A DNA stretch of 64,000 bases from Chloromonas sp. AAM2 (lineage: Eukaryota; Chlorophyta; Chlorophyceae; Chlamydomonadales; Chlamydomonadaceae). The position numbers and the translations under genes were made by a program. Below are positions 11,801 through 63,585 of the stretch, one piece after another. Positions within the stretch are counted from its first letter, which is position 1, and the number at the start of each line of letters is the position of its first letter. The notes below the pieces were generated by a model, which had not been told where the DNA came from, did not search any database, and saw nothing but the letters and a program-made list of their open reading frames with translations. The stretch lies in NCBI GenBank assembly GCA_004335635.1, contig QAXH01005157.1:32234-96233 (forward strand). The letters are read 5' to 3'.

Positions 11801-14800
11801 ATGGCCAGCGTGACGGCTGTCAGCTCAAACCCAGCCCGGTTTTTGAAACCCTGGTTGGGATGCCGAGTGCATCCCTTGCCTCCTCTGCCTCAGCCTGCAC
11901 CACTGAGGCTGGGAGTGCGAAGCTGCTTTGGCTCGCGTGGCCTGAGGGTTTGGGCCTTTTCATCAGAGCACGCCCGCGCTTCGGCACGATCCAATGACAG
12001 GCCGGAGGGCCAGACTGTTGAAGACTCACTCGCTGAGGAAACATTTGACTGGCGTCGGACGTCTGCAGCTGTCGTGTTGCTGGTGTGTGTGTGTGTGTTT
12101 TGTCCAATATCTGCGAAGCCCTAATGGCCCTCTTTAGTTGCCGCAGCGTCACCGCACTTGGGCTTCAGCAGTGCTGCCTCTAAATGAACAAGCGCATTGG
12201 TTGCTGCCGTCTTGTATGTGCAGGGTCTGACATGGGCTTGGGCATGCGCATGTCGCCCTGTTTGTGCGGACTCACCTTGTCTGGCGTCAGTATCCGCACC
12301 TCGCAGCACACAACAATTCAGGTCAGAATAGATACGGGACAATTGTTGCACCGCTACACAGCGATAGTTAACTCTAGGGTTTTCGCTTGACCAAGGGTCA
12401 GAGCAGATCCCATCTGGTGAGCTTGCATTGCCCTTGCTTTTCTCGCAGACGCTTTGATTCACGTCAACCAACGAAGAAGTCCGCCAGCGCCCCCAAGCGG
12501 TTTGTTTACGGGGTCTTCCGCTTCACTTGGGCTTTGATCGACGTGCCCGTTCGTGTTGTGGTGAGCAAGCAGGCGGATTCCAGCATGGACAGTCACTGCC
12601 CGCTGCTTTCAGATCTCGACGTTGTGTCGCCGGCCCGGCGCCGGCTCCCAGCGCATCAGCCGCCGCGTTGCGAACCAATGTGCCTGCCTGGTGTTGTGCA
12701 GGAGTACTTGCTGCTCGGGCCTAATCCCCTCGAGCCATACCTGTGAGTGCCGGGGTTATACATGCTGCCTGCGGAGGGCGTGGCTCAAAGTGACTGAATT
12801 CTATCAACGTAGTTTGCATCACTGATGCTGCTCTCTGCATTCAATCTTACATGATGGCGCACCTTATGTGAGCACCTGACTGACTCCACCTTACTGTTGT
12901 TGCCACGGCTCTCTGGTGCGCAGGCCTGGTCCGAATGCCTCCACGCAGCCTGCTGATGCAGCCACCTTCAGCCCAGACACATCCAATCTCAAGGCCTCTG
13001 CATTCCCCACCCCATACCAGGCTACGGACCCGGGCCATGCGACAGGTGACTTGGTGCACGCTGCGCATGCCGCCTCCACACTGCCATCAGCCAAGCCAAT
13101 GCCCACTGCAGCCGATGATGACTCTGCGAGCAGAGAGCTTAGCAACCCTGCAACTGTGTCCAGCGGTGCGAAGCCCGTGCGCATCGTTTATGTGCCTCGG
13201 CAGACACCAAACCGCACCTCCAGCCTGCCAGTGTTCGTGAAATCGCTTTACACGGATGCACTCTCCACATGGCTGCCCCGATGCACACCTACCACTGAGC
13301 TAATCACCAGTCAAGAACAGGACGAGCATTTGCACGACTGGAACTCAGAGCTCGCTTCAGATGTTGAGTACGTGGAGACACCAGTCATAACGCCCTTGCG
13401 CGTAGCCTTTTGGGTAGTGTCAACGCTGTACTTCTTTTTCTTCTTGGCCAGTGTCATCAAGAAAGCAGCCAAGCCAAGCAACGCCAAACCAGCAAAGCGT
13501 GATGCAGCAGCGGGTGTCTCGTCAAATGGCAGCCACCCAGCTCGTCCAAGGTTGCCTGCTGCACCGCTCAGCAGCCCATCCGCTAGTCACCTGGTTTGCG
13601 ATATCCCACCACCTAAGTGTGACCTCCCACCGCTGAAGTGTGACTTGCCAACCAAGTGCGACTTGCCACCACCAAAATGTGTCCTACCGCCACCCAAGTG
13701 TGACCTGGCCCCACCAAGGTATCGCTTGCCACCAGCATCAGCACCTGTCAGCTGCTCCAAGCACCTGTCAGCTCCAAAGCCGGCTCCAGTCGGTTCCCAG
13801 CCGCAGCCAGCCGCTTCCGCGGCCAGCTCCCTGGGTTGCTCTGGTAAGGCACCTGGCAAGAGGAAGGCCAGGCGCGCAGAGAAAGCCTTAAAGGCTCAGA
13901 ACACGCAGCCAGAAAAGAGTTCTGCCAGTCCTTCGCCCTTTTCCCCTCTGGGCCTGCCCTTCGCCCCTGTACCGTTCGGGGTGGATGTGTTGGAGGGCTA
14001 CCCAAACCCTCCGTTTGAGGCATGCTTGCCCACCCCGAGCAAGAAGCCATCGAAAGCTGAGGGCGCAGCAGCTGCAGCTGCTTCAGGGCAAGAGCAGGCC
14101 ACGACGGCCGCAGCTCAGCCGGTATGCAACCAGCAGACGGAGTTGAAGACTGAGGGTTCGTTGACGTTGGAGCAAGGTGTGGCTACTGCCACAGGACAGG
14201 CAGTGAACGGCCAGCAAGCTGCGTCTGGGGCTTTTGGGGTCCCAGTGCTGCAGAAGGAGGGTCCACCAGATTTAGTCGAGCTGGGCTTCGGTTTCAAGCT
14301 GGTAGACGAGTGGTCGGCTAGCCCCGTGCTGAAGGTTTCCACAGCCCCTGAGGCAACAGTGCCAGCACGCCACGACCACGAGATGGCTGATGCTGATGTG
14401 GCTGCCTTGGGGATAGAACGGAATGCAGCTGTGGCAGCGACAGAGGCACTGTCTGATCATGCAGATGGGAGCTTGAGTGAGGAGAAACTGCGGCCAGGGT
14501 CTGCCTTTGCCCTTCAAGCAGAGCCGTGCGAGGTTGATGACAACGATCCATCCCTGTTCTTTCAGCACAGACGGCGCTCGAAGTTTCCCCGACGTTTCCA
14601 GCTTTTGTTGCACACTGATGCTACACCTGCTGAGGAAGCTGCTTCAGCCACACAAGAGCCCACATCAGCGGCTGCAGCAGTTGCCGACACAGCAGTCCAA
14701 GCGGCGGCAGCAACAGCGCCACCTGTTGTTCCACCAGCAGCCACCTCAACAGGTGCTGTACTGCCAGCTGCTCCAGCAGCCACTTCCGTTGCCACACCAG

Positions 14801-17800
14801 CTGCACCGCCAACAGCCTTGTCAGGTGCTGTAGTAGCAGCAGCCTCTGCAGCTGCCGCTACTGCTGCAGCAACAGCAGCTAGCTCTGCCGCCTCTGCAGG
14901 CGCAGCCGCAACATCTGCTGTGGCTAGCTCTATGCTTGCAATGGTGGAGACTCAGCAGGTGTGTTGATTTAGCTAGCGATGATCGATATGTTGTAAGTGG
15001 TGTGTGCATGATAAGCCCGATGCTGTGGTAGCCATGCCTGCTTGAGAATTGTGTTTGAGATTCGTGGTTCGGATAGCTCGCTGTGCGCTTCAGAAGCGTT
15101 AACAGCACGCAAGCTCAGGCCAATGCCATGGTGTCACAGGATGGTGGCTGCTTGTGCTGCAGGTGTGGCGTGCCATGCATGACAACGTCCTCTCAGGGGC
15201 TGGTGACTCGAGCAATGATGAAGCTTCACCTCCGGCATGCCCTACCCAGGCCTCTGAGCTCTTCAGGAAAGGTGCCGGGGCTTGCCTGGATGCGCCCTCC
15301 GCCATCGGTGAGGTTTTGCAGCGCCAGCGAGCAGAGTACAGCAAGATGTGCTGTGCCCTGCGTGAAAACGGCCTTCTGAAGGCAGGTGGGAGCAGCCCAC
15401 CAGCGCCTGGCAGCCGCGGGCTCAGCGCCAGGTTGGACAGTGCACTGGGGACACTTGGTGTGGTTGCAACACAAACCACTTCTCCTTTGCCTGACATCCC
15501 TGAAGCTGCCATGGCTGCAGAGGAAGACACCAGAGTTGTCTCGCCGACAGCCATTGGTGAGGTGTTGTCTCAACAGCTTGAAGAATACGATGACATGCTG
15601 CACGCCTTGCAAGAGAATGGACTGCTCGGCCTTGTTGGCCTGGACCAGCCTGCCGACGCTGAATCAACGGCTGCAGCTTCACCCAGCATCGCAGCACCTG
15701 CAGCATCAGCAGCCTCCAGCAGCGATGTGGTTGCGACAGGCATTACAGACTCTGCCAGCTCGGCTGTTGACAAGCCCACGCTGTCCACCCAGGAAGCAAT
15801 TCAGAGGTTGCAGGAGCGAGGTTGGCAGGTGCAACACATGACGACCAAGCGCAAGCTGAAGCAGGGCGAGGCAGCACAGCTGTCTGTGCGATGCATCCTG
15901 CCATCAACCGCACCAACCCCATCTTCCGTCCAACTAGCAGCACCTGCTGCTGTTGCTGCTGACAGTAAGGGTGTTCAGGAGGCAGGTGTTGATGGCCCAC
16001 AGGTGCCAGCACTGAACTCCCTTGGAGCTTGCATTGCTCAAGCGGCTGCTACACACAAGTGTGGCTGCGACTCAGGCAGTGCAGCTGGTGCTGTACAGAT
16101 TGACACGGCCCAGCTAGACGATGTCACGCGGGACATCAGAACTGCATGGGGCCTGCCAGCTGATGCCACCTCAGCAACAACAGCAGCAGCAGCACAGCAG
16201 GCGCCAGCTGTGCCGGTTATTGATAGCACCAGCATTTGGGTGATGTCGGGCAGCGTGTCATGCAAAGTGCGCATTGCGCCTCCGCAGCAGAGCGGCCCTG
16301 CACAGCAAACGCAGGCACCTGACGGCCCGCCTCTGGCTATGGCCTCCCTGTGCACAGACCGTGTGGTGCCAGCCATGCTGCGGCCACGAGATGTCATGCC
16401 AGATGCATCATCTACGCCTGGGGCGCCAAGCGCAAGCACCAGACTCGCCACAACCACCGAGTCCGCTGTAGCAGACCAACAGGTGGCACCTTCAGCAGCA
16501 TCCGCAGAGCAGGCAATGCAGGCATCAGCCCCAGAGCCACTGATGGGCACTGAAGGCATCGCGAAGGTGATGACCTCAGCTGCAGCTGATGGGGCCACAG
16601 ATGAGGCAGGCGAGGGAGTGCAGCTTGGCGACAACGTGCGTGTGGATGTGAACGTGCAGCCAGGTGGCAGCGTGCAGGTCGGTGTACACACACGCCAGGC
16701 CGACAAAACCGCACAGCCCAGTAACGAGCCAGAGGCTGGAACAGTCAGCAGCAAGGCAACGGAGGCTGCGGGCGTTAAGCGGCCTGTGGTGAGCAGTCAA
16801 GTGCATAGATCTGGTCACCGCTGGGAAGCGCGTCTGACGGTGGACGGTCAGCTCGTGCACAGGGCTTCATTCAAGGACGAAGGCATGGCGCGTGACTACG
16901 AGCAGCGCACGTTCAAGAGCCAGGTGAGCTCATGTTCTCTTATGTTGCAAAGAAGCGTGGCTCAGTTAGCATGGCTTAGTTAGCGTGTCCCTGCAGCTGG
17001 ATAGGCAGTGCCAACACGAAGAGGCCCAACATAACAGCATGATAGCTAGCACCTGATTGTTTTGTTTTAGATTTTTGCCTTGCTGTTAGGCTCGTAGCCA
17101 CGGTTGCCGTCCTTGCCGCATGCACTAGAGTTTGTTTTTTTGCAATTGAGCAAAAGATCACGATAGTGTCGTTGTCTTTCATGTCGTTTGCGCAGGTCAC
17201 TGCTGATCCTGCCACTGTATCTTCCAAGGCTAGCAACCCTTCTGCCCCAGCCCCTGTTCCTGCCCTTGCCTCAAATGAGACAGCCTCCGCCAAGGAGCAG
17301 CACACGGAAAAACCGACTCAGGAGTCGTCTGCCACAGCCGCTGAAGATGCCGCTGCCGCGATTGGTGGCGCGTTTGTGAACGTTGCACCGTCTAACTCCA
17401 TGCCTGCTGATGATGGCGCAGCTGCAATCGGTGGCGTTTTTGTGAACGTCGCACCCTCCGACTTCACACATGCTGATGATGTTGCAGCCGCAATTGGTGG
17501 CGCATTTGTGAGCGTCTTGCCCGCTGAACCCATGCCAACTGAGTCTACCAAGGATCAGTCTTCAGCAACTGGGCGTGCATCTACTGCAGCTGGTGCAATC
17601 TCCGGTGCATTCATGTGCATTGCACCCACTGATGACGACTCCGATGTTGCACGATCTGCGTCTGCAATTGATGCAGCACCTTCAGCCACTGCAAATGCAT
17701 CTGCTGCGGCCGATGCCATGGCAAATGCGTTCTTATGTGTTGCGCCGACTGATGCAATGGTGCGTGGTGGTTGTGCCGCTAGTGTCCCGGAGCCTGCCGG

Positions 17801-20800
17801 CCATGCTGCGCCAACCTTGGCCGGATCTGCCACAGCAACTGGCACTGAGCCCACATCAGGTTTCCCCGCCCAAGCCGCAGATGAGCCCGCCCCTGACAAG
17901 AAGGCGTCATTGCCTCGTCCTTTCCGTCCCCCGTTCCAATCTCCCATGAGGGACCAACGCACTCACCCACTGACAGCCATACGCAAGGCGGCCGCAGCCA
18001 AGGCAGCCATGACCGCACCACCAGCGGATGCTGAATCAAGTTGGCCGAACATTCAAAAAATGGAAGAGTTCAATCAAAGGATGCGGGAAGCATGCATGGC
18101 AGCCAACGTCGCAGGCGATGTGTATGAACAGCGGCTGGCCAGGTTGGCCAGGCCTAGGATGGTCGGCCAGGATGCTGTGCCTATCCAGGCAATGCCAGCA
18201 GCTGATGGGGCAGTGAAGCCTGTTGAGGCAACGCCAGTCGTTGATGCAGTGCTGCCAGCCAAGGCGTCATCGGTTGTCAAGCCTCCCACTGAATCTGCTG
18301 AGGCAATTGCGCCTACTGAGCAGGCAGTGTCTGCCGCAGCAGCAGCAGCACCAGCCGACACACCTGTCCCGGCCAAGGCAGCTACTCAGGCAACCACTGA
18401 TGTGCTCTCTGAAGCTGCACCGGTAGCTCAGAAGGTGACGGGTACCAGCTCAAAGGACGGCACAGTGGCACAAATCACTGATGCTGGTGTTGATGCTCAA
18501 GGCGTGGGTCAGGTGGCCGAATCCATCAGGGCAGCACCTGGCAATGACGACAAGCAGAAGGTAAGGAGGCATGCATGCCACCATGGGTACGATGTCACGT
18601 CATGCAAAGGCTCGGTAGTAGCTGGCTTGCTGGTCTTCATTGGGCATGCGTGTGCAACGCGTGGGCATTTCATCCGTAAAGTCGGAGCTACATAGTCCAG
18701 CACTCCTGGAATGCTCATTGGATGATGGGCAAGGCAACCGTGAATAAAGGCTGTGTCTGCTTTTATAAAGGTGGATAATCTGCGCTTTTTGTCATGCCTG
18801 TGCATATGATGCCATTTGTCCTGATTTTGATTGGGGAGACATGCCTTCTGAAATGCCTTACAGGCCTCAGGCCCCTCTGTTGCGCAGCGTCGTGAGTACC
18901 AGCTGTACCGCCACGGAGGCCAGATGTATGTGCGGTACAGCGTAAGAGGCAGTACGTCCAAGGTGCGAGATATGCAAGATGTTTGGTACATGCAACATCT
19001 CGCGCTGGCCTCATCTGTACACAAACTGGTGCGTCTTCCCGATGTGCTGCAGCAGCACTCAATAGGTGTCGTCTGTGCTTGTACATTGTGTAAGGCCTTG
19101 CCTCTTGCAACGCAGGAGGATGCTGCTCAAGCACCTGGCAAGCCATCTCTGCCTGTCCTCGAAGTGGTCTCTCCAGGCCTGAAGGCAGAGCTGCGTGCAA
19201 CAGGTCGGTCGCATGGCTTGTTGTGGCTGTGAGGGATTGGTGCACAGGGTCTGTGAGGGATTGGTGCACAGGGTCTGTGAGGGATTGGTGCACAGGGTCT
19301 GTGAGGGATTGGTGCACAGGGTCTGTGAGGGATTGGTGCACAGGGTCTGCCATAACTGCTGCTGTATGGCCTAACGTGCTCGGTCGCTAGTTGACGCCGT
19401 CCGTATAGGCTGCCGTCCTTTCCGTAATGCCGTGACCACAAAAAGCCTTCTGCCCCTTTGTTCCTGCCGCCACATTGGATCCAGTGGCGTGCTTGGAAAC
19501 TGTCCCAGAACTGGCAAACATTTATTTTTGCTCTTTTTTTGTCCTCTGTGCAACCCAACCACATGCAACTGTCTGTGAATGTCTGACAAGCGCCAGTTGC
19601 ATCCAGACACGACACACTGAACCACATGCTCTTGTTTATGTTGGCGGGCGCAGTCAAGGGCGGCTCATCCCTGGCGAATGACATGTGTGTGCATCACAAG
19701 GCGCTGCCACAGGACGGCACGGACACCAAGGTACGACACATGCAACTTGGCTTGCTACACTTCTTACCTTTTGACGTGCGTTCAGTGCACCTACCCCTCA
19801 GACAAGCACACATATCACACAAATATCACACATGAACGTGCTGTAGACACTAGGGCACCACGTCAGTCCCAGCTCTCCAGGACTGGAATAGCCCTGCCCA
19901 AAGCCCAGCCTTGCCCAAAGCTTTGGTATGTTGATGTAGTCAGCAGGGTGTGTCCCTCCTGGCACTCTTGTAAGCGGTCGCATACTTTTACACTCCTATC
20001 TCTGCAGGCCTCAGGCCCCTCGATTGCACCACGTCGAGAGTACAAGCTGTACAGCCATGGAGGCCAGATGTACGTGCAGTACGGAAGCATCTCAAAGACC
20101 ACTGTGGACGCTGAAGGTACGTCTTGGCATCAGTCAAGATCTTATCTCACAAAACATGGCAGCGAAGATGCGTTTCTCATCATCTCAGTAGATAGGTGTC
20201 TGTTGCAACAAGGTCATTGCCCATGGCCCAGGGCAACGACATGATGCAGTGTCATTGTGTGCGTGCTATGCAACGCACATGCTGATTCTGCTGTGTGCAG
20301 CCACTCCTGTCGCCACTCCAACCATGGATGCAAACGCCACAGTTGATGTAAAGCAAGGCACATCCATGGACGCCACAGCCCACAGTACAGAGGGCCCGGT
20401 GGGTGTTCCCAGGACAGGCCTTGGTGCACAGACCAGCACTGGGTGACTGCTCATTATGTGCGTTTTCTCATCAGCATAGCGGAGTTGTATGCTTGATGCT
20501 GCGCTGTCCAGGACGTGTGTGCCATCCCTTTCTTGCCTTGTGCGTCTTGGACTGTTCCATTCCCTCTTGGGTGGCCTTTGTACTCAGTGTGGCGCTGAAC
20601 GTTTGGCTCTTGATTCCTTCGGGCAGCATCCATGCACTTGCCAATGCGTCTCAGGCAGCAATAGCAGTCACAGCATCAAGGCAGCTGCGACTAAGTGCTG
20701 TGATTGCGCGTGCTTGTGCAGGCTCCCGCTGACAGGTCCTCTTCAAGGGCAGAGAAGCAGAGGAAGGAGAAAACGCAGAAGTCGCCTGATGAGCAGGCTG

Positions 20801-23800
20801 TGTCGCCCGTCAGTGCAGGCGCAGCGGTGGTTGAGCTATGCGAGCACCACAGACTGACGGACAAGCCTCAGGTTTGTGGGCCCAACCTTTGATCATGTGC
20901 GTACTTGTGTTGCATGCATTGGCACGGTTGTAAAAAGAAGACAGTAAGCGTTGCTGGAAGCGTTGCTTTCCGTCCATGAGAGGTAGAGCCGGCTTTGCAC
21001 AGCTTTTAATGAACACCTTGCGACTTGAACTTTCTGGCTCAGCACTAGTTAGCACGGCGTTCTCTCTCATATGTTCTGCTAGTGGTTGTGCATGTGCTGA
21101 CCTGCATCGCATGGTTACCCCGCTGCCTCCTGCTGGTACCCTTGAATTGCTACTTACGTTTGCTGTTGCCGTGCAGGCATCAGGCTTGCCGGTTGCACCG
21201 CGCCGCGAGTACCAGCTGTACCGCCAAGCAGGACAGATGTACAAGCGGTACCATGAGACATGCAATCATCACATGACTGTGGATGCCGAAGGTAAGCAAC
21301 TTTCCTGCTCGTCACATGCCGTCTGAATAATACGTTTTTGAGTGTTGCTATTGATGTGCAATCCTGTGGGCAAGGCTGAGCTAGGCTCAGCGCAGAGATG
21401 GCAATGATTCGGTATGCACGTACTGATATCTGATGTCATTGCACGCAGTGGTTACCACCTTCACTCCTCCTCAGCACAAGGCTACCAAGGAAGACAGCAA
21501 GGAAGCAACCAAGGAAGTAACAACCTTTGAAGCTACTAAGGAAGCTACCAAGGACGCCAAGCAGGAGGTATCCACGAAGGCCACAGGTCAGACTGGGCAT
21601 GCGGAGGGGCCTGCAGCGACCAGTGACGACGGCCGGGCAGCCCGCATGTTCGAGTTTGTGGCCACCAACATGCTGCGCAAGAAGCCTCGCAAGGTGCGGA
21701 CTTCACGCCGTGTAACTAATACCACTTCAGCTTGAACTGCAATCGGCGTTGCTACTGCGGCTGACAACGGCAGCACGTGCATTTCGACCATTGATTTAGT
21801 AGTTGTCTGATCCACTACGATTGAATGCTCGTATTGAATGTTCATAGAGCACAAGACCATGTCACATGAACAACTGCTGCAGTGGGCTCAAACAGACTGT
21901 CAAAAACGCGTGTGTCATGTCTCATGTGAACAGGCTGATGCAGTGGCCAAGGAAATCGCTACACTGGCCATCATTGACGCTCTGGAGCCCACACCGGAGA
22001 CTGCAGGCCCAGCTGCCGACAAAGCAGCTGCTGACAAAGCAGCTGCCTCTTCTACTGAGCCCAGCACTGCCGTTGCTCAGGCACGTGCCTCATCGGATGA
22101 CGGGCATGCAGCCACCAGGGGCCGCGCTTCACAGACTGTAACATCAGACAGCCATGAGGTGAGAGGAGGCACAGAACTGATATTAACGTGCTGGTGTCTA
22201 CATCCACTCACGAGTTCAATTACTTGCACCTGATGTGTATGCGCACTCAATTTGTTCAATTCAATGCGCTTGGATTTGTGCACTTGCAGCTCGATGCGTA
22301 TGCAAACACACATGCAGCTTGAAGGCCACGAGCACATTGCAACTTGCAGGCAGTGTGATGTGATTCACCTGACAATCACCTTGTATTGCTGGGCTGCTTC
22401 TTTCCAGGCACCAGCCCCTGCTGTTGCTTCTCGGCTAGGGGGCCAAGAGCAGCCGTCTGGAGCGCAGCTGTTTGTGCGGTACGACGCCGCTAACGCCATG
22501 ATCACAATGGAGGTCTCAGGTAAGGTCAAGATGGCTGTTTGTTCTATCACTGGTTGCCATCTGACTGCCCATGCGCGCTGCAGCTCATGCATGTGTAGTC
22601 ATGTCATGAGACCGTGTACAAGGGGTCAGAAGCTGCACCACACCAAAGCTGTAGCTGTCAGCTGTGGTACATCGTGTGCTGGTTTGGCTGGCGTGCTCTG
22701 GCTTCAACTGGGACTGCCATCTGCCTTTATCCTGTGTAGGCGTAAGTACACAGCTCACACCGACCTGTGCAAGGGCCTGGATGCTACTGCCGAAGCTTTT
22801 ACCTGTGTTATGTCATGTGGCAGGATTCTCTGGTCAGCTCACACTTGATTACTAGGATGATTTGGATGTCAAGCCCCAAACGACTGGGTGTTGTCCGCTG
22901 TCACAGACCTGCCTGATCATCCGTCCTGCCTTACTGCGGGTTGCCCAGGCACTGGCAACACAAAGGCAACCGAGCAGAAGCCGGCAGGATCGGTAGCAGC
23001 AGTGACAAAAGCTATCCTGTTCTTGCTCTTATGTTTTTCCAGGCACTGGCAACACGAAGGTGAACGAGCGGGACACGGAAGCCGCAGTGAGTAAGGTCAT
23101 GTCCGGTCTGTCGCGTGGCGAGCGGCAGAGGGTGTACCGGAAGATGGCACTCGAGGCAGCAGCTGCTAACAGCGGTGCACGGAGCAGGCTGTCAACTGGC
23201 CCAGAGGCAGCTGCCAGTGGCACCGGCCAGGGCAGGCTGCCAGACAGCCCAGAACCAGCAAAGCCAGCCACGGATACCAGTAAGGTCACCAAACCGTCGG
23301 CCAGCCCTGAGCCAGCATCCAATAGTGCCAAGAGCGTCAAGCAGCAGGCACGGTCCCCTGGTGCACCTGAGGTGAACAGCCAGGCCAAGCCGGTTGGAAT
23401 AAGCAGGCGAGGCCCAGTTGCAAAGAGCCCTGAGCCCGCTGCCAGTGGCGCCAGCGGTTGTAAGCCGGCAGGCAGTCCTGCACCGGCGGCCAGCAGTGCC
23501 AGCCAGGCCAAGCCGACGGCTGATGCCAGCCGGACAAAGCCCTCCAAGAGTCCTGAGCCAACCACCACCGGCGACGGCAAGAGCAAGGCAGAGGGCGCAG
23601 GTGTCCGCAAGGCCCGTTCAGTCAGCCCTGGGCCTGCAGCAGCAAGCACGACCAAGGCTTCCCAACCAGTGAGTGCATTAGGTCTAGTTTGCATTTGAAA
23701 CGCACATGGACTGCAATTGCCTGCACTACCGGCCCCAGAACTGCACCAAACTTTGTGAATCTGCTTTTGTGCTGGAGGTTGCAAACACCCTGCCTTGCTT

Positions 23801-24717
23801 TGGTTTCAGGGTCGTGCTCGCAAGGGCAAGTCCTTTGGCGTGGCGGAAGAGATTGAGAGGCGGTGGACATTAGCGGCCGATTCCGACTACCAGGACCAAC
23901 GAGTGGGCAGCAAAAAAGAGTTCTGCATGATGGACCCCGACACCTGGGACCCTCAGGACAGGCTCGAATATGCAAGGCTCAGTGCGCTGTAAGTGCTTCA
24001 CGGGGCCGATTTGAGGGCAGAATGACCGCTATGGTGTTTATCGCTCAAATTCTGTACGGCAGCTGTAGCATTGTTAATGACCTACCATGCTCGCCGTCTA
24101 GGTTTTGTATGGCTTACAGTACATTCCCAAGAACCAAGGCCCTTGAAAGCACAGCCATGCTATGCGTTCAACGATGTAGATGCCAGGGTGTGGAATCTAC
24201 ATTTGGTTCAGACGAGGCTTTTTTGTTGGTTTTGTGGCTGCAGAGTCTTTCCACTTGAAGCGGCAGAGGAGCAGCGGAGGATGCCAAAGGTGCAGGAGGA
24301 ACGGAAGCAGACCCTCAAGGCAGAGGCACAGGCCAGGTAAGGGATTTTGTGTGGAAAAGGTGTGTGTACACTTGACCTGATCAGGCCACTTGTCAGCATG
24401 ATGTTTGACAGGCTGCAGTGGGCCTGATTTGACAGGTGCCTGGCAGCATTCACATAATTTGTAGTTCCCGTGGCATCATCATCAACATTGGATTGCGGTA
24501 CACAGATTATGCCCGGTAAACTCTCGGTATGGTGGTCAGTGATGGATCATCGTGGCGATAGTCACATGGCTAGCTGGATGTGTGTGGCAGACCCAGGTGG
24601 CTGACTAGGTGATGGCCACATGTCGTGCGATGGCGCAGGGCCTCGGCGTTTGAGGCGCGCATCAAGTCCCGGCAGGCGCAACAGGCCGAGGTGAAGAGGA
24701 ACCCGAAGCTACCATGA
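11801..24717 (+). CDS. Gene A: giant low-complexity, putative membrane-anchored protein with repeated Tyr-rich exon module
   Basis: Exons 11801-12082, 12224-12321, 12449-12560, 12702-12742, 12924-14958, 15163-16923, 17196-18560, 18864-18962, 19116-19203, 19654-19730, 20008-20116, 20301-20398, 20722-20871, 21177-21291, 21449-21693, 21934-22158, 22408-22519, 23043-23668, 23810-23988, 24244-24336 and 24639-24717 join to about 2662 residues. I do not recognise the family. Visible parts: an Arg/Ser/Ala-rich leader that could be organelle-targeting; a hydrophobic stretch at about 88-105; a second around WALIDVPVRVVEYLLLG; a strong membrane segment at about 336-356 (FWVVSTLYFFFFLASV); tandem KCDLPPP repeats at about 403-445; two copies of AIGEVLxxQxxEYxxM; a WEARLTVDG segment weakly like an AP2 fold; five AAIGGAFVNVAP-type repeats; four copies of a REYQLYRHGGQMYVRY exon; and a charged C-terminal tail. 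The first exons match gene B, which fixes the 5' end. Some 3' exon boundaries (for example 18962 versus 18941) remain uncertain, and splitting into two genes cannot be excluded. Confidence 0.65.
19229..19349. repeat. 24-bp minisatellite, about five copies, in a gene A intron
   Basis: The unit contains GAGGGATTGGTGCACAGGGT and repeats about five times without visible change between exons 19116-19203 and 19654-19730. Its reverse strand gives a spurious repeated open frame. Confidence 0.9.
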
Positions 24718-26828
24718 GAGAGAGTAGGTGAGCACGTGTGCAGTACACACAGGGCTGTCTGCCATGGATAGAAAATCACGGCGCAGTTATGAAACAATAG
24801 ATACGTTTGCTTTGGTTTGCTGCAATTAATTGGCAGCGGGCAGTCTGCTAAACAACTGTCTGCTGAACAACAGTCTGCTGAACAACTGTTGCCTGTGTTC
24901 GCTTGCTTGAAACTCACGTCTGATGGTGTGCTATGTGTGTGTTGAAATCCTTGCTTGCCTACAGGCCTGAAGCCACGTCGCCGGCACAGAATGCGGTTTG
25001 AATACCATGCGGCCACCTGTCGCTGAACTCGGCCAGTAAGCATGGCAGCGACATGTCACAGAATTCCAGGTTTGTACCATCAACCAGGCCATGTACACTA
25101 GCCAAAAAAGCATCAAGTGCGCCGAAATTTGTCAAGCTGGAGCAGGGGTGGAGCGGGATTTGTCCGTAGTATGTACCAGCCTGGAAGATATTGATTACAT
25201 TAGTTACCACCAGGTAACTAATAACCAGTCTGCTGTTATGAAGCAGAACCAAAACTGTACTGGGTTCTGCCTGCTAGCAGGCTCTTCCTGCGTTTTGTTC
25301 AGTCACCAACGGCAGTGTTTGTAGTGATGACAGTGCAGGGGCCGCCTGGCCTTTTTGGCTGTTGCTACATTAATTTGCTCGTGTATAGCAGAGTCTCAGT
25401 CACTTGTTGTATCCTTATGCATCGTGGTACCAAGCCATTATGTGTGTTGCCGTCTTCTGTATGATGTACGTAGCTTGAAACAGCATGTGTATCAGCACGT
25501 TTTTTTTGTGTTTTACGCAGGACCTTTAGCCTGTTGAATTGCACTTGTTGCAGTAGTGAATCTCTGCCCGTAGCAACCATTTCACCGCACCGTCATGTGT
25601 TTAAGCAGCGCCCAGTTGACATAGCCCAGTTGTCACCCTTGAATGCACGAGCCCTTCTGAGGACAATCAGCAGGACGACTGTTGCATAACAGTTTCTATG
25701 TGTTACCTTTTGTACCCTACTCTTATGTACTCTGCAATGCACGTGCTCGTCAGTTTGTGCTGTCTTTTGTACTGCATGTATCACCAGTAGTGGGAGCTGT
25801 ACCTTGTATCTTTACGTTTGTAGTTTTGCTATTTTTGTTGTAGATAAGGCTTTCAGGTGTTGGACAATGTACCGATGGATGGTCAGCCGCTTGATCTGCT
25901 CTTCTGGTGCTGGGGAACATGTACGTCCGCAGTGCAGAGTGCGCACCCTGATGACCATGTAGCCTTGAGCATGCGTTGCATAGTGATACTGCAAGGACAA
26001 GATGTAATGCTTCCTCGTCACGTTTGAATAGCTTCAGCCGCCAGCGGAAGCGTCAGCCTCGGCCGCCAGCTCATGAAGAGACAACTTTGGCTGATAAGCT
26101 CAACCACTTCGACAAAAGCTGGAATGTACTCCTGGTCATTGTCAGTATGCCCTGTAATGCTACAGCGCCAAACAAAAACAAACCACAACGACCACATTGC
26201 TGACACACACGCGTTGCTGAGACACACCGGTTCCAGCGTCAGTCCCAGGAATTGTCCCAGAAATGGCAAACGTTTTTTGATACAAAATACGGCCACATTG
26301 CAACAGCGCCAGCATAATAAATCCGCCAACCACATGACGCCCCGCGTTCTGATAGCAAAGATCATGATGGCAACGCCGGGTCGGAGGTCAGGCCACTCGT
26401 CCGACGAAGCAACTGATCATTGCGGCAGTCCCAGAACGGACGGCCTTTATGCGTTTGATCGTCAGGCGAATCAACTGATCATTGTGGCGCGTCACGCTCG
26501 GCTGTCTGCGGCGACTAGGGCTTTTGTTCGCTTGGTGCGCGCTTGCGTTCGTTATTGAATTGCTTTGCTTTATAAACAGCATATTCATCGCTTACCCATG
26601 CAGTTGTTGCCGGTTGTTGTTGTGGCTTGAGCATGCGTCACACGATCGAAGGTAAAAAGCTGTGACCAATCGCCAATGACATCACGGATGCCGTCGGAGG
26701 CAAACTCATCAGGCAGACAAGTGAGTAGGATCGTATCTTTACAAACGCGACCACACACGATTCACAAGTGCGGCTCGTGCGCTTGACACGATCTCGGAGT
26801 TCATCATACAAGCCTTCCGAAAGTAGCC
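24718..26828. other. Intergenic region between paralogs A and B, no gene seen
   Basis: About 2.1 kb. Open frames such as the one at 26073-26558 have no homology that I recognise and no splice context. A short direct repeat built on CTGCTGAACAACTGT occurs near 24845-24890. The last few hundred bases should hold the gene B promoter. Confidence 0.5.
26571..26576 (+). promoter_or_regulatory. Possible TATA box of gene B
   Basis: TATAAA stands 253 bp upstream of the proposed gene B start codon. Position and sequence suit a TATA element with a longish leader, but there is no other support. Confidence 0.25.
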
Positions 26829-29800
26829 ATGGCGACTACAGGCATCACAGTTATCAACCGTGGCCCATGTCGCTCCAAGCCCGGGTTCCAAGCTTCAGAG
26901 CTGCGTCCTTTGCCTCCCTGGCGCCAGCCCGCGCCATCGCGGCGACAAGCGCATCGCTACGAATGTTCGCGCGGCCTGGACGCATCCCAATCTTGTGAAT
27001 CATGCATGTCTGGGCAAGCAAATGCAAAGTCTATTGGCCCAACGATCGTCGCTGATGAGTCGATAGGCTCATGCCGTACGTTTGCCATGGTTGCGCTACT
27101 GGTAGGCCCCCATTGATTAGCAAGCGCAACAACATATATGGTCAACATATGCACCGCTGACTGAACTTGTCGTTTGGCACGCACATTATCCTGGGTAGAC
27201 AACTAAGGTGTGCCCCCAAATGAACAAGCGTATTGGTTGCTGTGGTTTTGTGCGTGCAGGGCTTGGCGTGGGCTGGCGCATGCGCAAGCCGCCCTGGTGC
27301 GGAGTTACCTTGTCTGGCGTCAGTATCCGCACCTCGCAGCACACACCAAACCAGGTGAGAAGCACTACCACCTACCGGTGCCGATGCAGCATCCGGCACA
27401 GATACAAAACTTTCTGTTGGAGGTTCGCGTTTGGTCGAAACAGAGTAAGCCTGTGTTGCCCTTGGTTTCTCACAGGCGCTCCGACTCGAGGCAACCATTG
27501 GACCAGAAGGATTCCCCAAGCACCACCAAGCGATTTGTGAATGGGGTCTTTCGCTTCACTTGGGCTTTGATCGACGTGCCCGTTCGTGTTGTGGTGAGCA
27601 AGCAGGCGAAGGCCAGCATTACCATTGTCTGCTGTTGCCAGACCCCCGACGATGTGTCGCCGGCCCGGCGCCTGCTCCCAGCGCATCAGCCCGCATCCCA
27701 GCGCCGCGTCGCGATCCAATGTGCCTGCCTGGTGTTGTGCAGGAGTACTTGCTGCTCGGGCCTAATCCCCTCGAGCCATACATGTGAGTGCCGGGATTCC
27801 TCCGTGCGCGTTGTGTGCCTGGCCTGCCCTCTGCAGAGCGTTCGTACGGTATCTATTGAATCCGTCCGCAACCTCCGCCGCTCTTTGCTTCGGTACGCAG
27901 GTCTTCTCGCGTCAGCAACAAAGCATTCAAGCAACCGGACGACGCGACAGCTCTCAGTCCCAACACATTCGCGCTCCATCCTTCCGAATTTCTCAAGATG
28001 CACGCCGCACCCTACACTGTTCCCTCAAGCAATACAACAGCTGACCTGGTGCGCGCTGCACGTACTGCAAGTTCTTCGCCCTCGGCCAACGTTAACCCTA
28101 CGTTGGTTGCCAATCAGGCGGACGACCACTTGGCCATCTGGGAGTCTGAGCTGGTTCTGGGCATACAATCCATGAAGTTGCCGTTTTGGTGGCGCTTTTC
28201 TGTCGTCCTCTCCGTGCTTCTCACCATCGCGCTGGTTGACTGTCTTGGATCATTTGCTGGCCTGCCAGCCAAGCGTCATGCAGTCAGGCCATCCAAGGAC
28301 AACCGTCAGGCTCGTTTGACGCTGGACACTGCACCGCTTAGCAGCCTGTTCGGCCCTTCAGCTGTCAGTTACCTGGTTTGCGATATCCCAGCACCTAAGT
28401 GTGACTTGCCGCTGAAGTGTAACCTGCCACCGCCAAAGTGCGACCTGCCGCTCAAATGCGACTTGTCACTACCAAAGTGTGACCTGTCACCGCAACCAGC
28501 TGCAAGGCATCTGGCAGCTCCACCACCAGCCAGTGCCAGCCAGCAGCTTCAGTCCTCACAGTCAGCTCGTGCTTCCATTCACCACTCTGCCAGGACACCA
28601 AGCTGCTTGATGATCATCGAAACCTGTTACCTGGCCCTCGAAGCCATCTCTGCCTTTGCCTTTGTTGTGGCATGCAAGGCCAGCAACGAATTGGTGGACA
28701 CCGCTACTTTGCCCAGCACTGCTGTACCTGCAGAGGGAGCCCCAGGAAATGGAGAGGTAAGAAATATCTGCACAGAATTTTCACCTGCTTCTGTGATACT
28801 GTTGTTGACTGCAAGACGAACAGCTCTCTCCTCGCACCGCAACATGCATGCCAGCTGTTGCATTGTGACGGACTCATGTGCATGCGGGACGCTCAAGCAG
28901 CAAACGTAGTGGGGCTCAGATATTTGCTTTTTAACTTGCGCAGCGACGTGTGTATCAGCTGTACCGCCGCAGCGGGTCCATGTGGGGAAGGCATACTGTT
29001 GCTGCACACCAACCTACAACGGAGACCAGAGGTGCGACTGGGTGAAACGTGCCCGTGCTGACATCTTGGAAAACAGCACCTTTTCCTAACCAGATGGCAA
29101 GCTTGGCTTCAAAGTGCGCTTGTGACACACTCTGCCTTCTGGTGTGGCACCAGAGAGCCACACATGCAGCTGCACTTGCAGCCACGAGGCAGTTTGGCTG
29201 ACCAACTCTCCTATTGCAGTTGGTTTTCTGGTCATATTTAATGTACTCAGATCAATAGATTACAGCATGACTGCAACGGTGCATCTCGGCTTATGCATGC
29301 GCAGCCAAATGTGTGCATAGTGTTCTTGTTCTGCAGGGATGCAAGGTTGCATGGGATTCTCTGCGCCGCCCAGTCGCATGGCCCTGCCAACGCAGGTCAG
29401 GGGCCCATCCGTGTCAGCACCAGCCATATTCAATAATTAACTGTGCAAAGCAGCGTCAGCGACCTCTGCCACCCGCACAGCAGCAGCTGCAACCACCGCC
29501 GCGCCGGCCCCATCACAGCAGTACAAGCAGCACTGGTCAGCCCACCATACCTACCGCTCTCAAGCCCAGGGCTCATGTGCCAAGCAGCTTCACCTGAACC
29601 CACAACACTCCTACATACTTCCTCAACCTGTTGAAGCAGCTCAACAGGGACAGCAAAGCAGCAAAGCGCATGGGTTATAGCCTCACAGCACAGTCCCGTC
29701 ATGAACTGCTCAGCTGTGCAAACAGGCAGCTGCTGGTATGCAAAGATACAGGCACGAACTGACTGCAATGGACTTCTCTTTTCTGGGTTCATCCATATCA

Positions 29801-30736
29801 CAGGCCAGCACTGCCCTGGCTGGCGCTCAGCTGGCACCACTGGCTGAGGCCACCATCTCAGCAGCCATCCACGCCCCTGCCTTGCGCACAGCGAGCATTT
29901 CCAGCTGGTCGAGTCTGTTGCATGGCCTCACCAAGGCAGGGGTGCGCTATGGTTCCCTGCGCGACCTCATGGACCATGCCCAGCGCTGCATGACACCAGA
30001 GGTCTGGCGGACAGGCACCATCAAGGGAGGCACACCTGAGCTACAGAGGGTATCCCTTCTGCTGTGGCCGTATGCATCTGCAGGCTACCAGGGCGATGTC
30101 AGTGCCTTGATCAATGGCGCCAAAATTGCCCCGGAAGCAGGCTCATTTGCTGCTGCACACGGACAAGAATGCAGTAATCTGGTGTGGGCGTTGGGCACCC
30201 TTGGGTGCACTCTGCAACAGCCTGGCACAGTAGCCGTGCTCAGGATACTGACTGACGCAGTAGCAAATGGAATCATGACAGATGCCACCACCCAGGCTTG
30301 GGCAAACCTGCTACTGGGCCTGGCCAAGTGCGGCTGCAACGTTGATGCCACGCTCACACCCTTGGATGTGCGGCCTGTGGTGGCAGCAGCAGTGAAGGCA
30401 GAGCAGCAGGGCAGCATGCGGCAGGCAAAAGCACAGGAATGGGCTAACCTGATGTGGACTCTGGCCACCATGGGTTGTCGTGCGGCCCCTGGCAGCCAGC
30501 CTGACATCAGCCCCCTGGTGGCCAGTGTGGTCAGCCATGTGCAGCAGGGCAGCATGCAGCAGGCAAAACCACAGGAATGGGCTAACCTGATGTGGGCTAT
30601 AGCCAAGATATGGGCGAGCCAGTCCACAGCACAGGAGGTCGTGCGACAGGCATTGGCAGCCTTGATGCTCCAGGCGCACCATAGCCGATGTAACGTAAAG
30701 GGCATCCGACAGATGGGTTATGCTCTTAACCACTAG
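26829..30736 (+). CDS. Gene B: OPR-repeat protein with N-terminal membrane segments, paralog of gene A
   Basis: Exons 26829-27101, 27260-27354, 27476-27593, 27743-27783, 27901-28756, 28944-29031, 29454-29535 and 29752-30736 join in phase to 845 residues. The leader shares PLPPWRQPAPSR with PLPPLPQPAPLR of gene A, and a hydrophobic segment VALLGLAWAGACA spans the first splice junction (VVLLGLTWAWACA in A). Next come KRFVNGVFRFTWALIDVPVR, a membrane segment at about 271-292, KCDLP repeats at about 336-374, one Tyr-rich exon (RRVYQLYRRSG) and an Ala/Thr linker. Residues 518-845 hold about five OPR-like repeats; the clearest are QEWANLMWTLATMGC and QEWANLMWAIAKI. Known OPR proteins of green algae bind organelle RNA and control its maturation or translation, so a membrane-tethered organellar RNA factor is the inference. 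An alternative end at 29597 through a Pro/Gln exon is less likely, because the splice to 29752 restores the OPR frame. No obvious gene B exon duplication is seen apart from the OPR repeats. Confidence 0.75.
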
Positions 30737-34200: not shown

Positions 34201-37200
34201 GCCTTGGCCAAGTCACGGAGCATCACTGAGTTCATGCTTGCATGTGCTCCACTCCTACCTGCACTGTCTGACTTGGAATCATGGTAATCATAGCATACCA
34301 CACCATCACATATCATGACTATCATGACATAGATTTTTGCGTGTGTCTGCAGTTTCGCTGACCTGGTAGTACGTGGCAAACTCGGAGAAGTCAGCGTCGG
34401 CCCCGGTGTAGTACATGCCGTCGTGGCGGTTGAGCTGATCCACCTGAAACCAGGAGAACCTGTGTGGACAGAATGGCACTGGGCACAGCGTGCATCACTC
34501 TTCATTGGCGTGCATCACTCTTCATTGGCGTTCATCACTCTTCATTGGCGTGCATCACTGTTCATTGGCGTTCATCACTCTTCATTGGCGTTCACCACGC
34601 TTCATTGGCGTTCATCACTCTCCATTGGCGCTCATCACTCTTCATTGGCGATCATCACTCTTCATTGGCGTTCATCACTCTTCATTGGCATTCATCGCTC
34701 TTCATTGGCTTGGGGATACACTGGGCCAGGGGTGAGGGCTCGGGTTGTGTTGCGGGTTAGTGATTGGGGCCAGCTGGCAAGGCCATGCCAGAGAATGCAG
34801 GGGCCAGCAGACAGGTTTGGCAAGTGCCAGTGAATGGGATTGGAAGGGGCAGCTGAGGAGGTCTGGCAGCAAGCCCTGACTTGACAAATTTGTAGACTGG
34901 GCAGTCCTGCTATACCGCTACGTGGCATGCTCTTTCTGCTGCATTCATCACTTTTCATCTTCTTCACAGTAATTTGGCTGGACTTACATGCACCTGGCAG
35001 CAGCTAACAATCCCAAACGTGAACCATTGTGCAGCCTGTTGCAAACTCTTGCCAACATCAGCAAGCAGCTTCACTTGCATTCCCCACGTCTCCACTCACG
35101 CATTGAGTAGAATGACCGCCGGCTGCTTTGGGAATGTGAGCAGCTTCCTCAGCAGGCGCTCAAAGGCCCTCCGGACCAGATTGTCGTACTTATTGATCCC
35201 GTTGGTGAGCGTCTCCTCATCGTTGAGTGCATACTCAACAATCACAATGTCCACGTCCTGAAGAGCAGCATGGTGAAGCACTGTCTGTGTGCATATTCTG
35301 CTGCACGAGGTGGCTCATAAGATGATGAACCACGAGGGGCAACAGCGTGCTCTGGTTAAGACTATGACCACAATTGGGAATATGCAGCGCACATGAACTA
35401 AGCTTTTCTAAGGCGCCAAACTGGAGCAGCCGCTTGCCAAGCCAGCGACCCCTTACCCCAAGCCCCATCCCGTACGATCCCGAACTCAATTGTTCTAGGC
35501 ACCTGCTTTTCAGTGCCCCAGTCCGCTCACCTGGGGCACGTGCTTGTTGTAGCACACCGACATGTACCTGCACACAGGTGACAGGCGGGTGACAAGGCAG
35601 TGGGTAACTCAGTGCACTGTGCACTGCAAGCCCATCTCACGTGCTTGACACCGTGTCCGTGTCCCACACACTCCTTACAGCAACCCTTACAAGCCATACT
35701 GCACTTGAAACGCCCACACACACAGTACAAGTGCAGAGGACAATGCGGCTCCGTGCAAATCCCATCCTCTGGCTCACGGGTTATCATGCCCTAGTGAGAC
35801 AGTCACAGGGCGCAACACATCGCGCCCCGTGACCTATGATGGCTTCCGTATTGTAAACTGTCAGTTTATCAATTAATCCAGTCACAGCCAGCGTTCCTAT
35901 GTGTGGCCTTGACTCACGATGAGTATGTGCCCGGCACCGCCCCATTGGCCACCCGCACTCGCGGGTCTCCGATGGGCTCCTGCGCCACCCACCCATCCCG
36001 AGTGCCGTTGTACTCCAGACCAAGCCAGTCCTCAAACCACTCGACCCAACTGCGGGAGCAAACAGATGACACCACGGTGGGGATACACGCAGTGCATGTG
36101 ACCAGCACTGCAATGACCAGCAGTGCATGTGACCAGCACACAACTGGTGGTGACCAGCACAGCACATGGCGGCAAGCAATCAAGGTGTGTGTCAGGCCTG
36201 AAGCCAGCCAAAGCCGTCACATTATATTCACGAGAGACGTGCATCATCTATCCATTCACATACACCACTGTGTAATTGTGTGACCTTGTCCACCCACATT
36301 CTCACCAGCCATCGTCTCTTCAGTAACCACGAACTCCAACCGCAGAGGCCGCTTCCCATCTCATGGGCGCTCACCACCCACCAAACCATGTCTGTTGGGA
36401 GTTAGCTTGTACCCAGAGCAGTCACCCAGCCCATGCTGGAGCCAGCTTCTGATGAATTGTTCATCTGACCTCCACTTGACATTGCATCATTCACACCGTT
36501 TCCCACCTCTGTGGTGCGGTGATACAATTGCCAGTTTTGCTGCCTTGCTGAGCAGTCCTCCCGGGATTGAAAGCCATGTAACAACAACAACAACCAGAAC
36601 AACCACAACACCCTTTCCCACCTCTGTGAGTTGAGTGCTCCTGCGCCGGCCGATATGGACCCGCCCACCACCCCAATGGTGAGGTTGCCCGTCTCCTTGT
36701 GCCTAGCCAGCGCAGCCCTGAGCCGGCCCCAGTCGCCCGCGTAGGAAAGACCCAAGTGCCGCTCGCGCTCGGGGAGCATGAACCCAGGCCACCTGCTCAG
36801 ACAACAGAGCATGTCGACATGACGCAAGGCATGCTCAACGATGCCAGGAGAATACCAGCCCTTGGTTTAGGACTGTGAAGGCAGGTTCAGTGGTCCATGC
36901 AGGATCCGAGTATGCATGAACGCATCGGATATCAAGACGCATGGCAGAGCCCCATCATGCAAGGGCGTTACAATAGGGTGGACTGTATGAGCAGGGATGC
37001 ATACTCCAAGTAGGCTTACGAGTGTGGCAGTGGCAGTCCACCGAGCAGTCTTCTGCTGGATCCCTGCCGCTCAATTTGCATCCGTGCTGCTTGTTGCTGC
37101 TCTGGACTGCCTGGGTACCAAGGCCACAATGGCTTCTCGTCATTTGATGTCGCTGTGATGTGGCCACGAGGCACACCTCCATCTTCCGCATGCCGCTCTC

Positions 37201-44600: not shown

Positions 44601-44811
44601 TCATGGTGTATGCCCCAGTTGCACCGTGAATGATTCCTGGGAGTATCGCTGGAACCGGTGTTGTGAGTGTGCGTTGTGGGGAGCAAGTGCCAGAACGCGC
44701 TGGGCGGTTTTCCATGGGCGTTGCCGTCCACCAATTCAAAAAACGTTCCCGAAGGTTGATTGGTGAATTTATCCTGATGCCGTGACATGCCCAGAAATAT
44801 AACAGGTGTAA

Positions 44812-44849
<38 letters not shown>

Positions 44850-44871
44850 AGAAGTATAGAAATATAACAGG

Positions 44872-44908
<37 letters not shown>

Positions 44909-62996: not shown

Positions 62997-63267
62997 GTGA
63001 CTTGGCTACTGCACACGGACCTTGCCCCACAGACCGCCATCGGTGGTCGGCTGGTTTGACTGAGGGGCAAGGTCCGCCGTTCACCACTTAGGTACTGCAC
63101 ACGGGCCTTGCCCCACAGCAGTCTAAGACTGCCTTGTATCATCATCATCATCTACATCATCACCACTGCGTTTCAAAGAAAACCGAATCGGCTCAGGTGC
63201 AAGCTCGCTGGGGAGCAATCCTTATCGCTACCTAGCATTTGGGATGATGATTAAATCACACGGGCTG

Positions 63268-63585
63268 ATGCACTACAGGCGATCATTGAAGCCAATGTGA
63301 AGTGGGTTTGATACCACTCAGAACGATATCCCCAGAAGGACAGGTGTGTCTTGCCATGCCAAAATGAGACGATTGAGATGCTGGGCTTGAAAATGATCAC
63401 TCGCTTTGTTGAATGGTCACGATTGTTCCTTAAAACTGAATGCAACTCGGCCTCATAACACAGCATATACGATGTCTTTCGCTGAGATGCACCAGCTTTG
63501 AGCTGGTCCGTTGTGCAGACCGCTTCAGCCTGCGCTTCAGCACTGTGCAAGAGGATGCCGCTGTGCTGCCTGGACGTGGCTGTTA
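63268..63585 (+). repeat. Dispersed repeat R2, copy 3
   Basis: CTACAGGCGATCATTGAAGC through CGATATCCCCAGAAGGACAG at about 63276-63345 and AGGATGCCGCTGTGCTGCC at about 63551-63580 match 59565-59970 in the same order with a shorter spacer. Confidence 0.65.

What the first reader, a model, noticed from the sequence alone, without database searches (positions are those of the whole stretch)
11801..30736. Tandem paralogs A and B: one OPR protein, one giant protein without OPR repeats
Seen: genes A and B share the same first five exons in order, length class and phase (A 282/98/112/41 bp, B 273/95/118/41 bp, then a large exon), a matched leader motif, a hydrophobic segment across the first splice junction, a later membrane segment, KCDLP repeats and a Tyr-rich exon. 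B then ends in OPR repeats; A does not and is three times longer. Inference: a local duplication followed by loss of the RNA-binding domain in one copy and expansion of a different module. I know of no described family with this architecture.
Basis: partly seen in the sequence, partly recalled or inferred. Interest (0 to 1): 0.8.

Follow-up and report, generated by a model that had tools for sequence, protein, structure and literature searches.

The report
Algal twin genes beside OPR domain
Two neighbouring, anciently duplicated genes of what is probably a green alga share the same first exons, and only one is followed by an RNA-binding repeat domain, which was probably added beside that copy later rather than lost from the other.

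Summary
The shared anatomy is real. A is a 21-exon model (11801-24717, 2,662 aa). A's first four exons are 282/98/112/41 bp, B's 273/95/118/41 bp, in matching phases. The N-terminal parts align at E = 6e-48; exon 1 aligns well only in the proposed frame. The Tyr-rich exon recurs in B (E = 2.5e-6). The module was found only twice in the 74.4-Mb genome. Three protein searches found no homologue.

The inferred history is not supported. The OPR-like tail (29705-30736; predicted alpha-solenoid) has paralogues elsewhere without this leader. Its split from the nearest is younger (dS 0.85) than the A/B split (1.48). The window shows no similarity to that paralogue except after B. Gain beside B fits better than loss from A. 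Whether B is spliced to the OPR is open: the acceptor that keeps most of the open frame scores below all 24 model sites.

Extra: exons 2-4 with intron 3 form an island of low silent divergence (dS 0.28) in a near-saturated duplicate, probably gene conversion.

The parts
11801..12082 (+). A exon 1 (leader)
   Evidence: frame supported
12224..12321 (+). A exon 2
12449..12560 (+). A exon 3
12702..12742 (+). A exon 4
12924..14958 (+). A exon 5: membrane segment, KCDLP repeats
15163..16923 (+). A exon 6; its last 74 codons predicted as a beta-beta-beta-alpha piece
17196..18560 (+). A exon 7 with a 66-bp repeat array
18864..18962 (+). A exon 8, Tyr-rich module 1
20008..20116 (+). A exon 11, Tyr-rich module 2
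21177..21291 (+). A exon 14, Tyr-rich module 3
21449..24717 (+). A exons 15-21 to the stop codon
26829..27101 (+). B exon 1 (leader)
27260..27354 (+). B exon 2
27476..27593 (+). B exon 3
27743..27783 (+). B exon 4
27901..28756 (+). B exon 5: membrane segment, KCDLP repeats, B-specific tail
28944..29031 (+). B exon 6, Tyr-rich module
29337..29395 (+). B exon 7 (candidate)
29705..30736 (+). OPR-like open frame; candidate last exon of B from 29714
12175..12757 (.). Island of low silent divergence, copy in A
27211..27798 (.). Island of low silent divergence, copy in B

Best explanation
A and B are an old tandem duplicate of a gene with no relative found here; it encodes a leader, a membrane segment, a KCDLP-type repeat block and Tyr-rich modules. 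After the duplication, a copy of an unrelated OPR gene came to lie directly downstream of the shorter copy B. Most likely B's 5' exons are spliced onto that OPR open frame, so that B lends a leader and a membrane anchor to an RNA-binding alpha-solenoid, while A stays a long, mostly disordered membrane-anchored protein. Shown: the duplication. Supported by dates and paralogues: the separate and later arrival of the OPR. Inferred only: the spliced fusion, organelle location, anchoring, RNA binding.
For: Duplication. Only two copies of the module found. OPR relatives without the leader: (four contigs besides the window's own). No similarity to the C2258 OPR protein elsewhere in the window. Dates: (order reversed in 0.3% of 20,000 draws from the bootstraps). 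The OPR frame at B is under constraint (differences at codon positions 1/2/3: 109/80/156; dN/dS 0.41-0.51 against C2258). The model has a confident helix from residue 2 of the open frame (first ten residues mean pLDDT 84), so an upstream start or exon is expected. Exon 7 ends in phase 0, the phase the OPR frame needs, at a good donor (8.9). TGTAA, an algal poly(A) signal by recall, occurs at 30689 and 31062 but not between exon 5 of B and the OPR; weak.
Against: The acceptor at 29714 scores below all 24 model sites; the in-frame alternatives at 29726 (2.1) and 29831 (4.6) cut into the conserved part. DNA similarity to the C2258 paralogue continues about 90 nt upstream of the open frame in another frame, as expected of an OPR gene broken at its 5' end; the protein-level test of that part is not significant (416 of 4873 random pieces score as well). 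Dates rest on near-saturated dS and could be disturbed by conversion between OPR copies; the direction (OPR from C2258 to B or the reverse) is not known. No RNA data.
Confidence: 0.5

Rival explanations
1. B and the OPR are separate: B ends soon after exon 7, and the OPR is a neighbouring gene, or the remnant of one broken at its 5' end.
For: Weak joining acceptor; stop at about 29440 when exon 7 is read on; upstream DNA similarity to C2258 in another frame with a one-base gap at the start of the open frame (0 of 1000 in each of two null sets, small margin); the C2258 relative stands alone.
Against: The frame is open over 343 codons (200 shuffles of its bases reach at most 207) and under constraint; only about 310 bp lie between exon 7 and the open frame; a stand-alone OPR would begin inside the domain with no leader.
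Confidence: 0.35
2. One reading: the ancestor carried OPR repeats, and A lost them while another module grew.
For: B carries leader and OPR in one phase-consistent model; A has expanded repeated modules.
Against: OPR relatives lack the leader; the OPR split is younger than the A/B split; no remnant near A.
Confidence: 0.1
3. The contiguity of B with the OPR is an assembly error.
For: The genome is fragmentary (2,324 contigs) and the frame changes at the start of the open frame.
Against: No ambiguous bases in the window; I saw no sign of a break there, but reads were not available.
Confidence: 0.05

Closest known systems
Octotricopeptide repeat (OPR) proteins, LWALAR type such as CCS2 (PMC5541062, passages read)
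   Same: Predicted alpha-solenoid with LWALA-like motifs; best Foldseek hit is a chain of the Polytomella F-ATP synthase (6rd4_2, E 4.5e-5), and Polytomella and Chlamydomonas mitoribosome chains also match (8a22_AM E 2.9e-4; 7pkq_P E 0.02, TM 0.56). ASA2 is among the OPR proteins used in PMC5541062; that 6rd4_2 is ASA2 is recalled.
   Different: Motif spacing here is 40-48 residues, mostly above the 38-40 given for OPR (PMC8635915, passages); no RAP domain; six motifs in 343 aa. TPR and armadillo solenoids also appear lower, and a three-sequence profile matched a designer PPR protein at E 4.7e-5 with no single stretch passing, so the fold alone does not single out OPR.
Composite OPR-RAP/PPR proteins of Trebouxiophyceae (PMC13126933, passages read)
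   Same: An OPR solenoid joined to another module in green algae, possibly by rearrangement.
   Different: There the partner is a PPR solenoid and five species have it; here the partner is an orphan membrane leader in one genome, and the join is unproven.
AP2/ERF or double-stranded-RNA-binding mini-domains (end of A exon 6)
   Same: Predicted beta-beta-beta-alpha order (one sequence, pTM 0.48, residues 31-70 with block means 84-92). The likeness to these folds is recalled; dsRNA-binding chains appear among the weak hits.
   Different: No Pfam match, no PDB sequence match, no Foldseek match at E <= 0.001, best 0.077.

Membership tests
OPR proteins (29705-30736) | Tandem helical-pair repeats forming an alpha-solenoid | tested here: met
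   19 helices in order, mean pLDDT 84.6, pTM 0.82; solenoid hits, not specific to OPR
OPR proteins (29705-30736) | Repeat length 38-40 aa | tested here: inconclusive
   Motif starts at residues 71, 119, 159, 202, 249, 295: spacings 48, 40, 43, 47, 46
OPR proteins (29705-30736) | PPPEW or LWALAR-type consensus | tested here: inconclusive
   LLHGLT, LLWPYA, LVWALG, LLLGLA, LMWTLA, LMWAIA resemble LWALAR but were found with a pattern written from these strings; a first, more general pattern found none. PPPEW is absent from the translation
OPR proteins (29705-30736) | RAP domain (in part of the family only: 163 of 1067 candidates in PMC13126933) | tested here: not met
   No RAP match in Pfam at E <= 1; optional, so not excluding
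OPR proteins (29705-30736) | Organelle targeting and RNA binding | not testable with these tools
   The leader of B looks transit-like by composition only
AP2/ERF domain (A 16702-16923) | Match to the family profile | tested here: not met
   0 Pfam families listed at E <= 10
AP2/ERF domain (A 16702-16923) | Three-stranded sheet packed on a helix | tested here: inconclusive
   Element order predicted; no title among the 50 rows printed names AP2 or ERF

The most novel reading that the evidence does not exclude
B encodes a membrane-tethered OPR protein born by capture: an orphan leader-plus-anchor cassette placed in front of a stray OPR solenoid, giving an RNA-binding factor fixed to an organelle membrane, while conversion with A keeps the exon 2-4 cassette alike in both genes.
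Probability: 0.2. Interest if true: 0.5.

Novelty: new variant of a known kind. Interest (0 to 1): 0.36.

Why it matters
If B really reads through into the OPR, an organelle RNA-binding factor has been caught gaining a new leader and membrane anchor from an unrelated tandem duplicate, with the unfused sister gene beside it as a control. If not, it is a caution that neighbouring exons in intron-rich algal DNA are easily read as one gene. The island of low divergence bears on how tandem duplicates keep short cassettes alike while the rest drifts to saturation.

Tried and rejected
Protein searches for relatives found none: B exons 1-5 (E <= 10, 7994 candidates scored), the OPR frame (E <= 0.001, 7998), A exon 6 (E <= 1, 7989). 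Each scored only the candidates sharing most words. I do not know how many algal gene models that collection holds, so this does not show absence in other algae.

Rfam: no family at gathering threshold in the window. Intron 3 as a structured RNA: both copies fold no better than shuffles (z 1.24 and -0.21); not supported as the reason for the island.

Retained-intron coding of intron 3: from the exon ends it is 141 nt in A and 149 nt in B, so a common frame is not kept; rejected.

Tyr-rich modules as copies of the exon 6 piece: alignment scores reached by 74, 445, 548 and 360 of 1000 shuffles; rejected.

Protein-level proof that the OPR homology runs upstream of 29705: not significant (416 of 4873). 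Only the anchored DNA test supports it (observed 0 against null maxima of -5 and -2).

One slice (E5b) was out of frame through my slicing error and showed nothing; redone in frame (score 235, 0 of 1000). Self-comparisons of A for internal repeats printed no rows, so the repeats rest. In one search the B exon 6 module was found by profile; my first slice of it was one base off and gave a wrong translation, corrected. A note puts a dispersed repeat 0.6 kb from the C2258 OPR; coordinates show less than 0.1 kb. The promoter/terminator scan of the gap is for bacteria and says nothing here.

Literature: listings (25 of 71 papers shown; 15 of 57; 2 of 2); passages read in PMC8635915, PMC13126933, PMC5541062, PMC8660880. 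None of what I saw describes an OPR protein with such a leader; I read no paper whole.

Full report
What was checked. The window lies in contig C1419 of a 74.4-Mb, 2,324-contig genome. I take it to be a green alga because of the OPR-type genes and the intron-rich structure; the species was not identified.

Gene A. Hand modelling of GT-AG exons gave 21 exons from the ATG at 11801 to the stop at 24717, 2,662 aa, with phases meshing throughout. In leave-one-out scoring all 24 training donors (20 of A, 4 of B) score 4.9 or more; 23 of 24 acceptors score 4.6 or more, one -0.3. I picked the training sites myself, so this shows consistency, not expression. The protein is 18.5% Ala and rich in Ala/Pro/Ser/Thr (35-52% in ten blocks of about 266 residues) with few bulky hydrophobic residues. 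It has one clear membrane segment at 338-356; the other stretch over threshold (809-827) is Ala-rich. It also has KCDLP repeats and a 66-bp repeat array in exon 7 and three Tyr-rich modules. No Pfam match reached a curated cut-off. A 74-residue piece at the end of exon 6 is predicted as beta-beta-beta-alpha without a significant structural match.

Gene B. Exons 1-5 at 26829-28756 match A in order, phase and, for the short exons, length class. Exon 6 (28944-29031) is a Tyr-rich module: the profile built from A's three copies finds it at E = 2.5e-6, the next window hit being 1.2. It enters in phase 0 and leaves in phase 1, as A's exons 11 and 14 do. Candidate exon 7 has the best acceptor of 28.7-29.9 kb (15.1). 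B exon 5 has a tail with a second hydrophobic segment (about 414-436); the tail's best match in A covers 33 residues and is weak (7 of 200 shuffles as good).

Paralogy. blastp of the two N-terminal parts gives 6e-48. E1 aligns well only in the proposed frame (score 90, 0 of 1000 shuffles; other frames 30 and 36). For E2, E3 and part of E5 other frames also beat shuffles, as near-alike DNA must, with lower scores. Outside E2-E4, dN is 0.52 and dS 1.48, and third positions differ most in E1 and E5, so both copies have long been under coding constraint. The module was found in just two places in the genome: for the exon 5 protein, for the exon 2-4 DNA. A exon 6 and exons 18-21 have no second copy at E <= 0.001 (one weak hit of E 0.45).

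The island. From 12175 to 12757 (27211-27798 in B) the copies are 76% identical over 609 aligned columns. Exon 4 is at 98%, intron 3 at 87% and the last 49 bases of intron 1 at 84%, while the rest of intron 1, intron 2 and most of intron 4 are at 44-59%. dS in E2-E4 is 0.28 (95% 0.16-0.46) against 1.48 (1.12-2.39) outside. The longest identical runs are 66, 57 and 39 columns; 1000 permutations of the columns gave at most 28. Protein constraint alone cannot do this, since silent and intron sites are alike. Gene conversion in two tracts is the simplest cause, because intron 2 between them is diverged. Constraint on DNA or RNA cannot be excluded: the edges lie close to splice sites, though no RNA fold supports it.

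The OPR segment. The 343-aa frame 29705-30736 is predicted as an alpha-solenoid (mean pLDDT 84.6, three-sequence alignment). Five PDB chains reach E <= 0.001: a Polytomella F-ATP synthase chain, a trypanosomal RNA-editing chain, a Polytomella mitoribosome chain and two Toxoplasma mitoribosome chains. TPR and armadillo solenoids follow lower down, and a sequence profile touches a designer PPR protein (E 4.7e-5), so the fold alone is not proof of OPR. Six LWALA-like motifs are spaced 40-48 residues apart. It is best called OPR-like. Its relatives in the genome are on C2258 (583-codon open frame; 56% over the best stretch), C2234 (39%), and weakly C2288 and C749. In the stretches taken around these four places (L014-L017), and in L018 and L019, neither A nor B exons 1-5 matched at E <= 0.5.

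Does B reach the OPR? A legal 8-exon, 850-aa model exists. The joining acceptor at 29714 scores -1.9, below all 24 model sites; 39.6% of AG sites in the window do as well. Alternatives at 29726 and 29831 are in frame but cut into the conserved part. The C2258 paralogue aligns as DNA for about 90 nt further upstream of the open frame, in another frame, with a one-base gap at its start. So an OPR gene probably once extended upstream here. Either an intron of a fused B now covers that part, or the OPR is a neighbour broken at its 5' end. The frame has been kept under constraint: dN/dS 0.41-0.51 against C2258. Splitting by the C2234 copy as outgroup gives about 0.42 on the B branch and 0.39 on the C2258 branch (my arithmetic, with near-saturated outgroup dS).

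Gain or loss. The OPR split from C2258 (dS 0.85, 0.69-1.07) is younger than the A/B split (1.48, 1.12-2.39); in 20,000 random draws from the bootstraps the order was reversed in 0.3%. The C2258 protein matches the window at E < 1 only between 29708 and 30733. I therefore read the OPR as a later addition beside B. Which way the OPR copy travelled is unknown, and an outgroup with OPR on a single-copy orthologue would overturn the reading.

Function, inferred. The leaders resemble organelle targeting sequences by composition (A: 1 acidic and 8 basic residues in the first 60; B: 4 and 9), followed by a moderately hydrophobic stretch and a clear membrane segment. If fused, B would tether an RNA-binding solenoid to an organelle membrane; A would be a membrane-anchored, largely disordered scaffold. 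None of this is tested.

Verdict. A new variant of a known kind, of moderate interest.

Noticed in passing
window 12175-12757 and 27211-27798: Exons 2-4 with intron 3 are far less diverged at silent sites than the rest of the duplicate; likely gene conversion in two tracts.
   Followed up: yes
window 16702-16923: End of A exon 6 is predicted as a beta-beta-beta-alpha mini-domain with no significant family or structure match.
   Followed up: partly
window 19440-19580: Short dispersed repeat (core about 70 bp) inside A intron 9; 43 matches listed genome-wide, itself included, with 40 of 308 candidates scored.
   Followed up: partly
window 43000-43173, also 59557-59654 and 63258-63381: Dispersed repeat of about 160 bp, SINE- or MITE-like; 40 matches listed, itself included, with 40 of 224 candidates scored. 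One copy lies less than 0.1 kb beyond the 5' end of the OPR open frame on C2258.
   Followed up: partly
window 2720-3092 and 34488-34712: Two direct-repeat arrays with 60-bp period, about 90-97% alike between copies.
   Followed up: no
window 44793-44934: Cluster of direct and inverted repeats.
   Followed up: no
window 19227-19349: Five perfect copies of a 24-bp unit in A intron 9.
   Followed up: no
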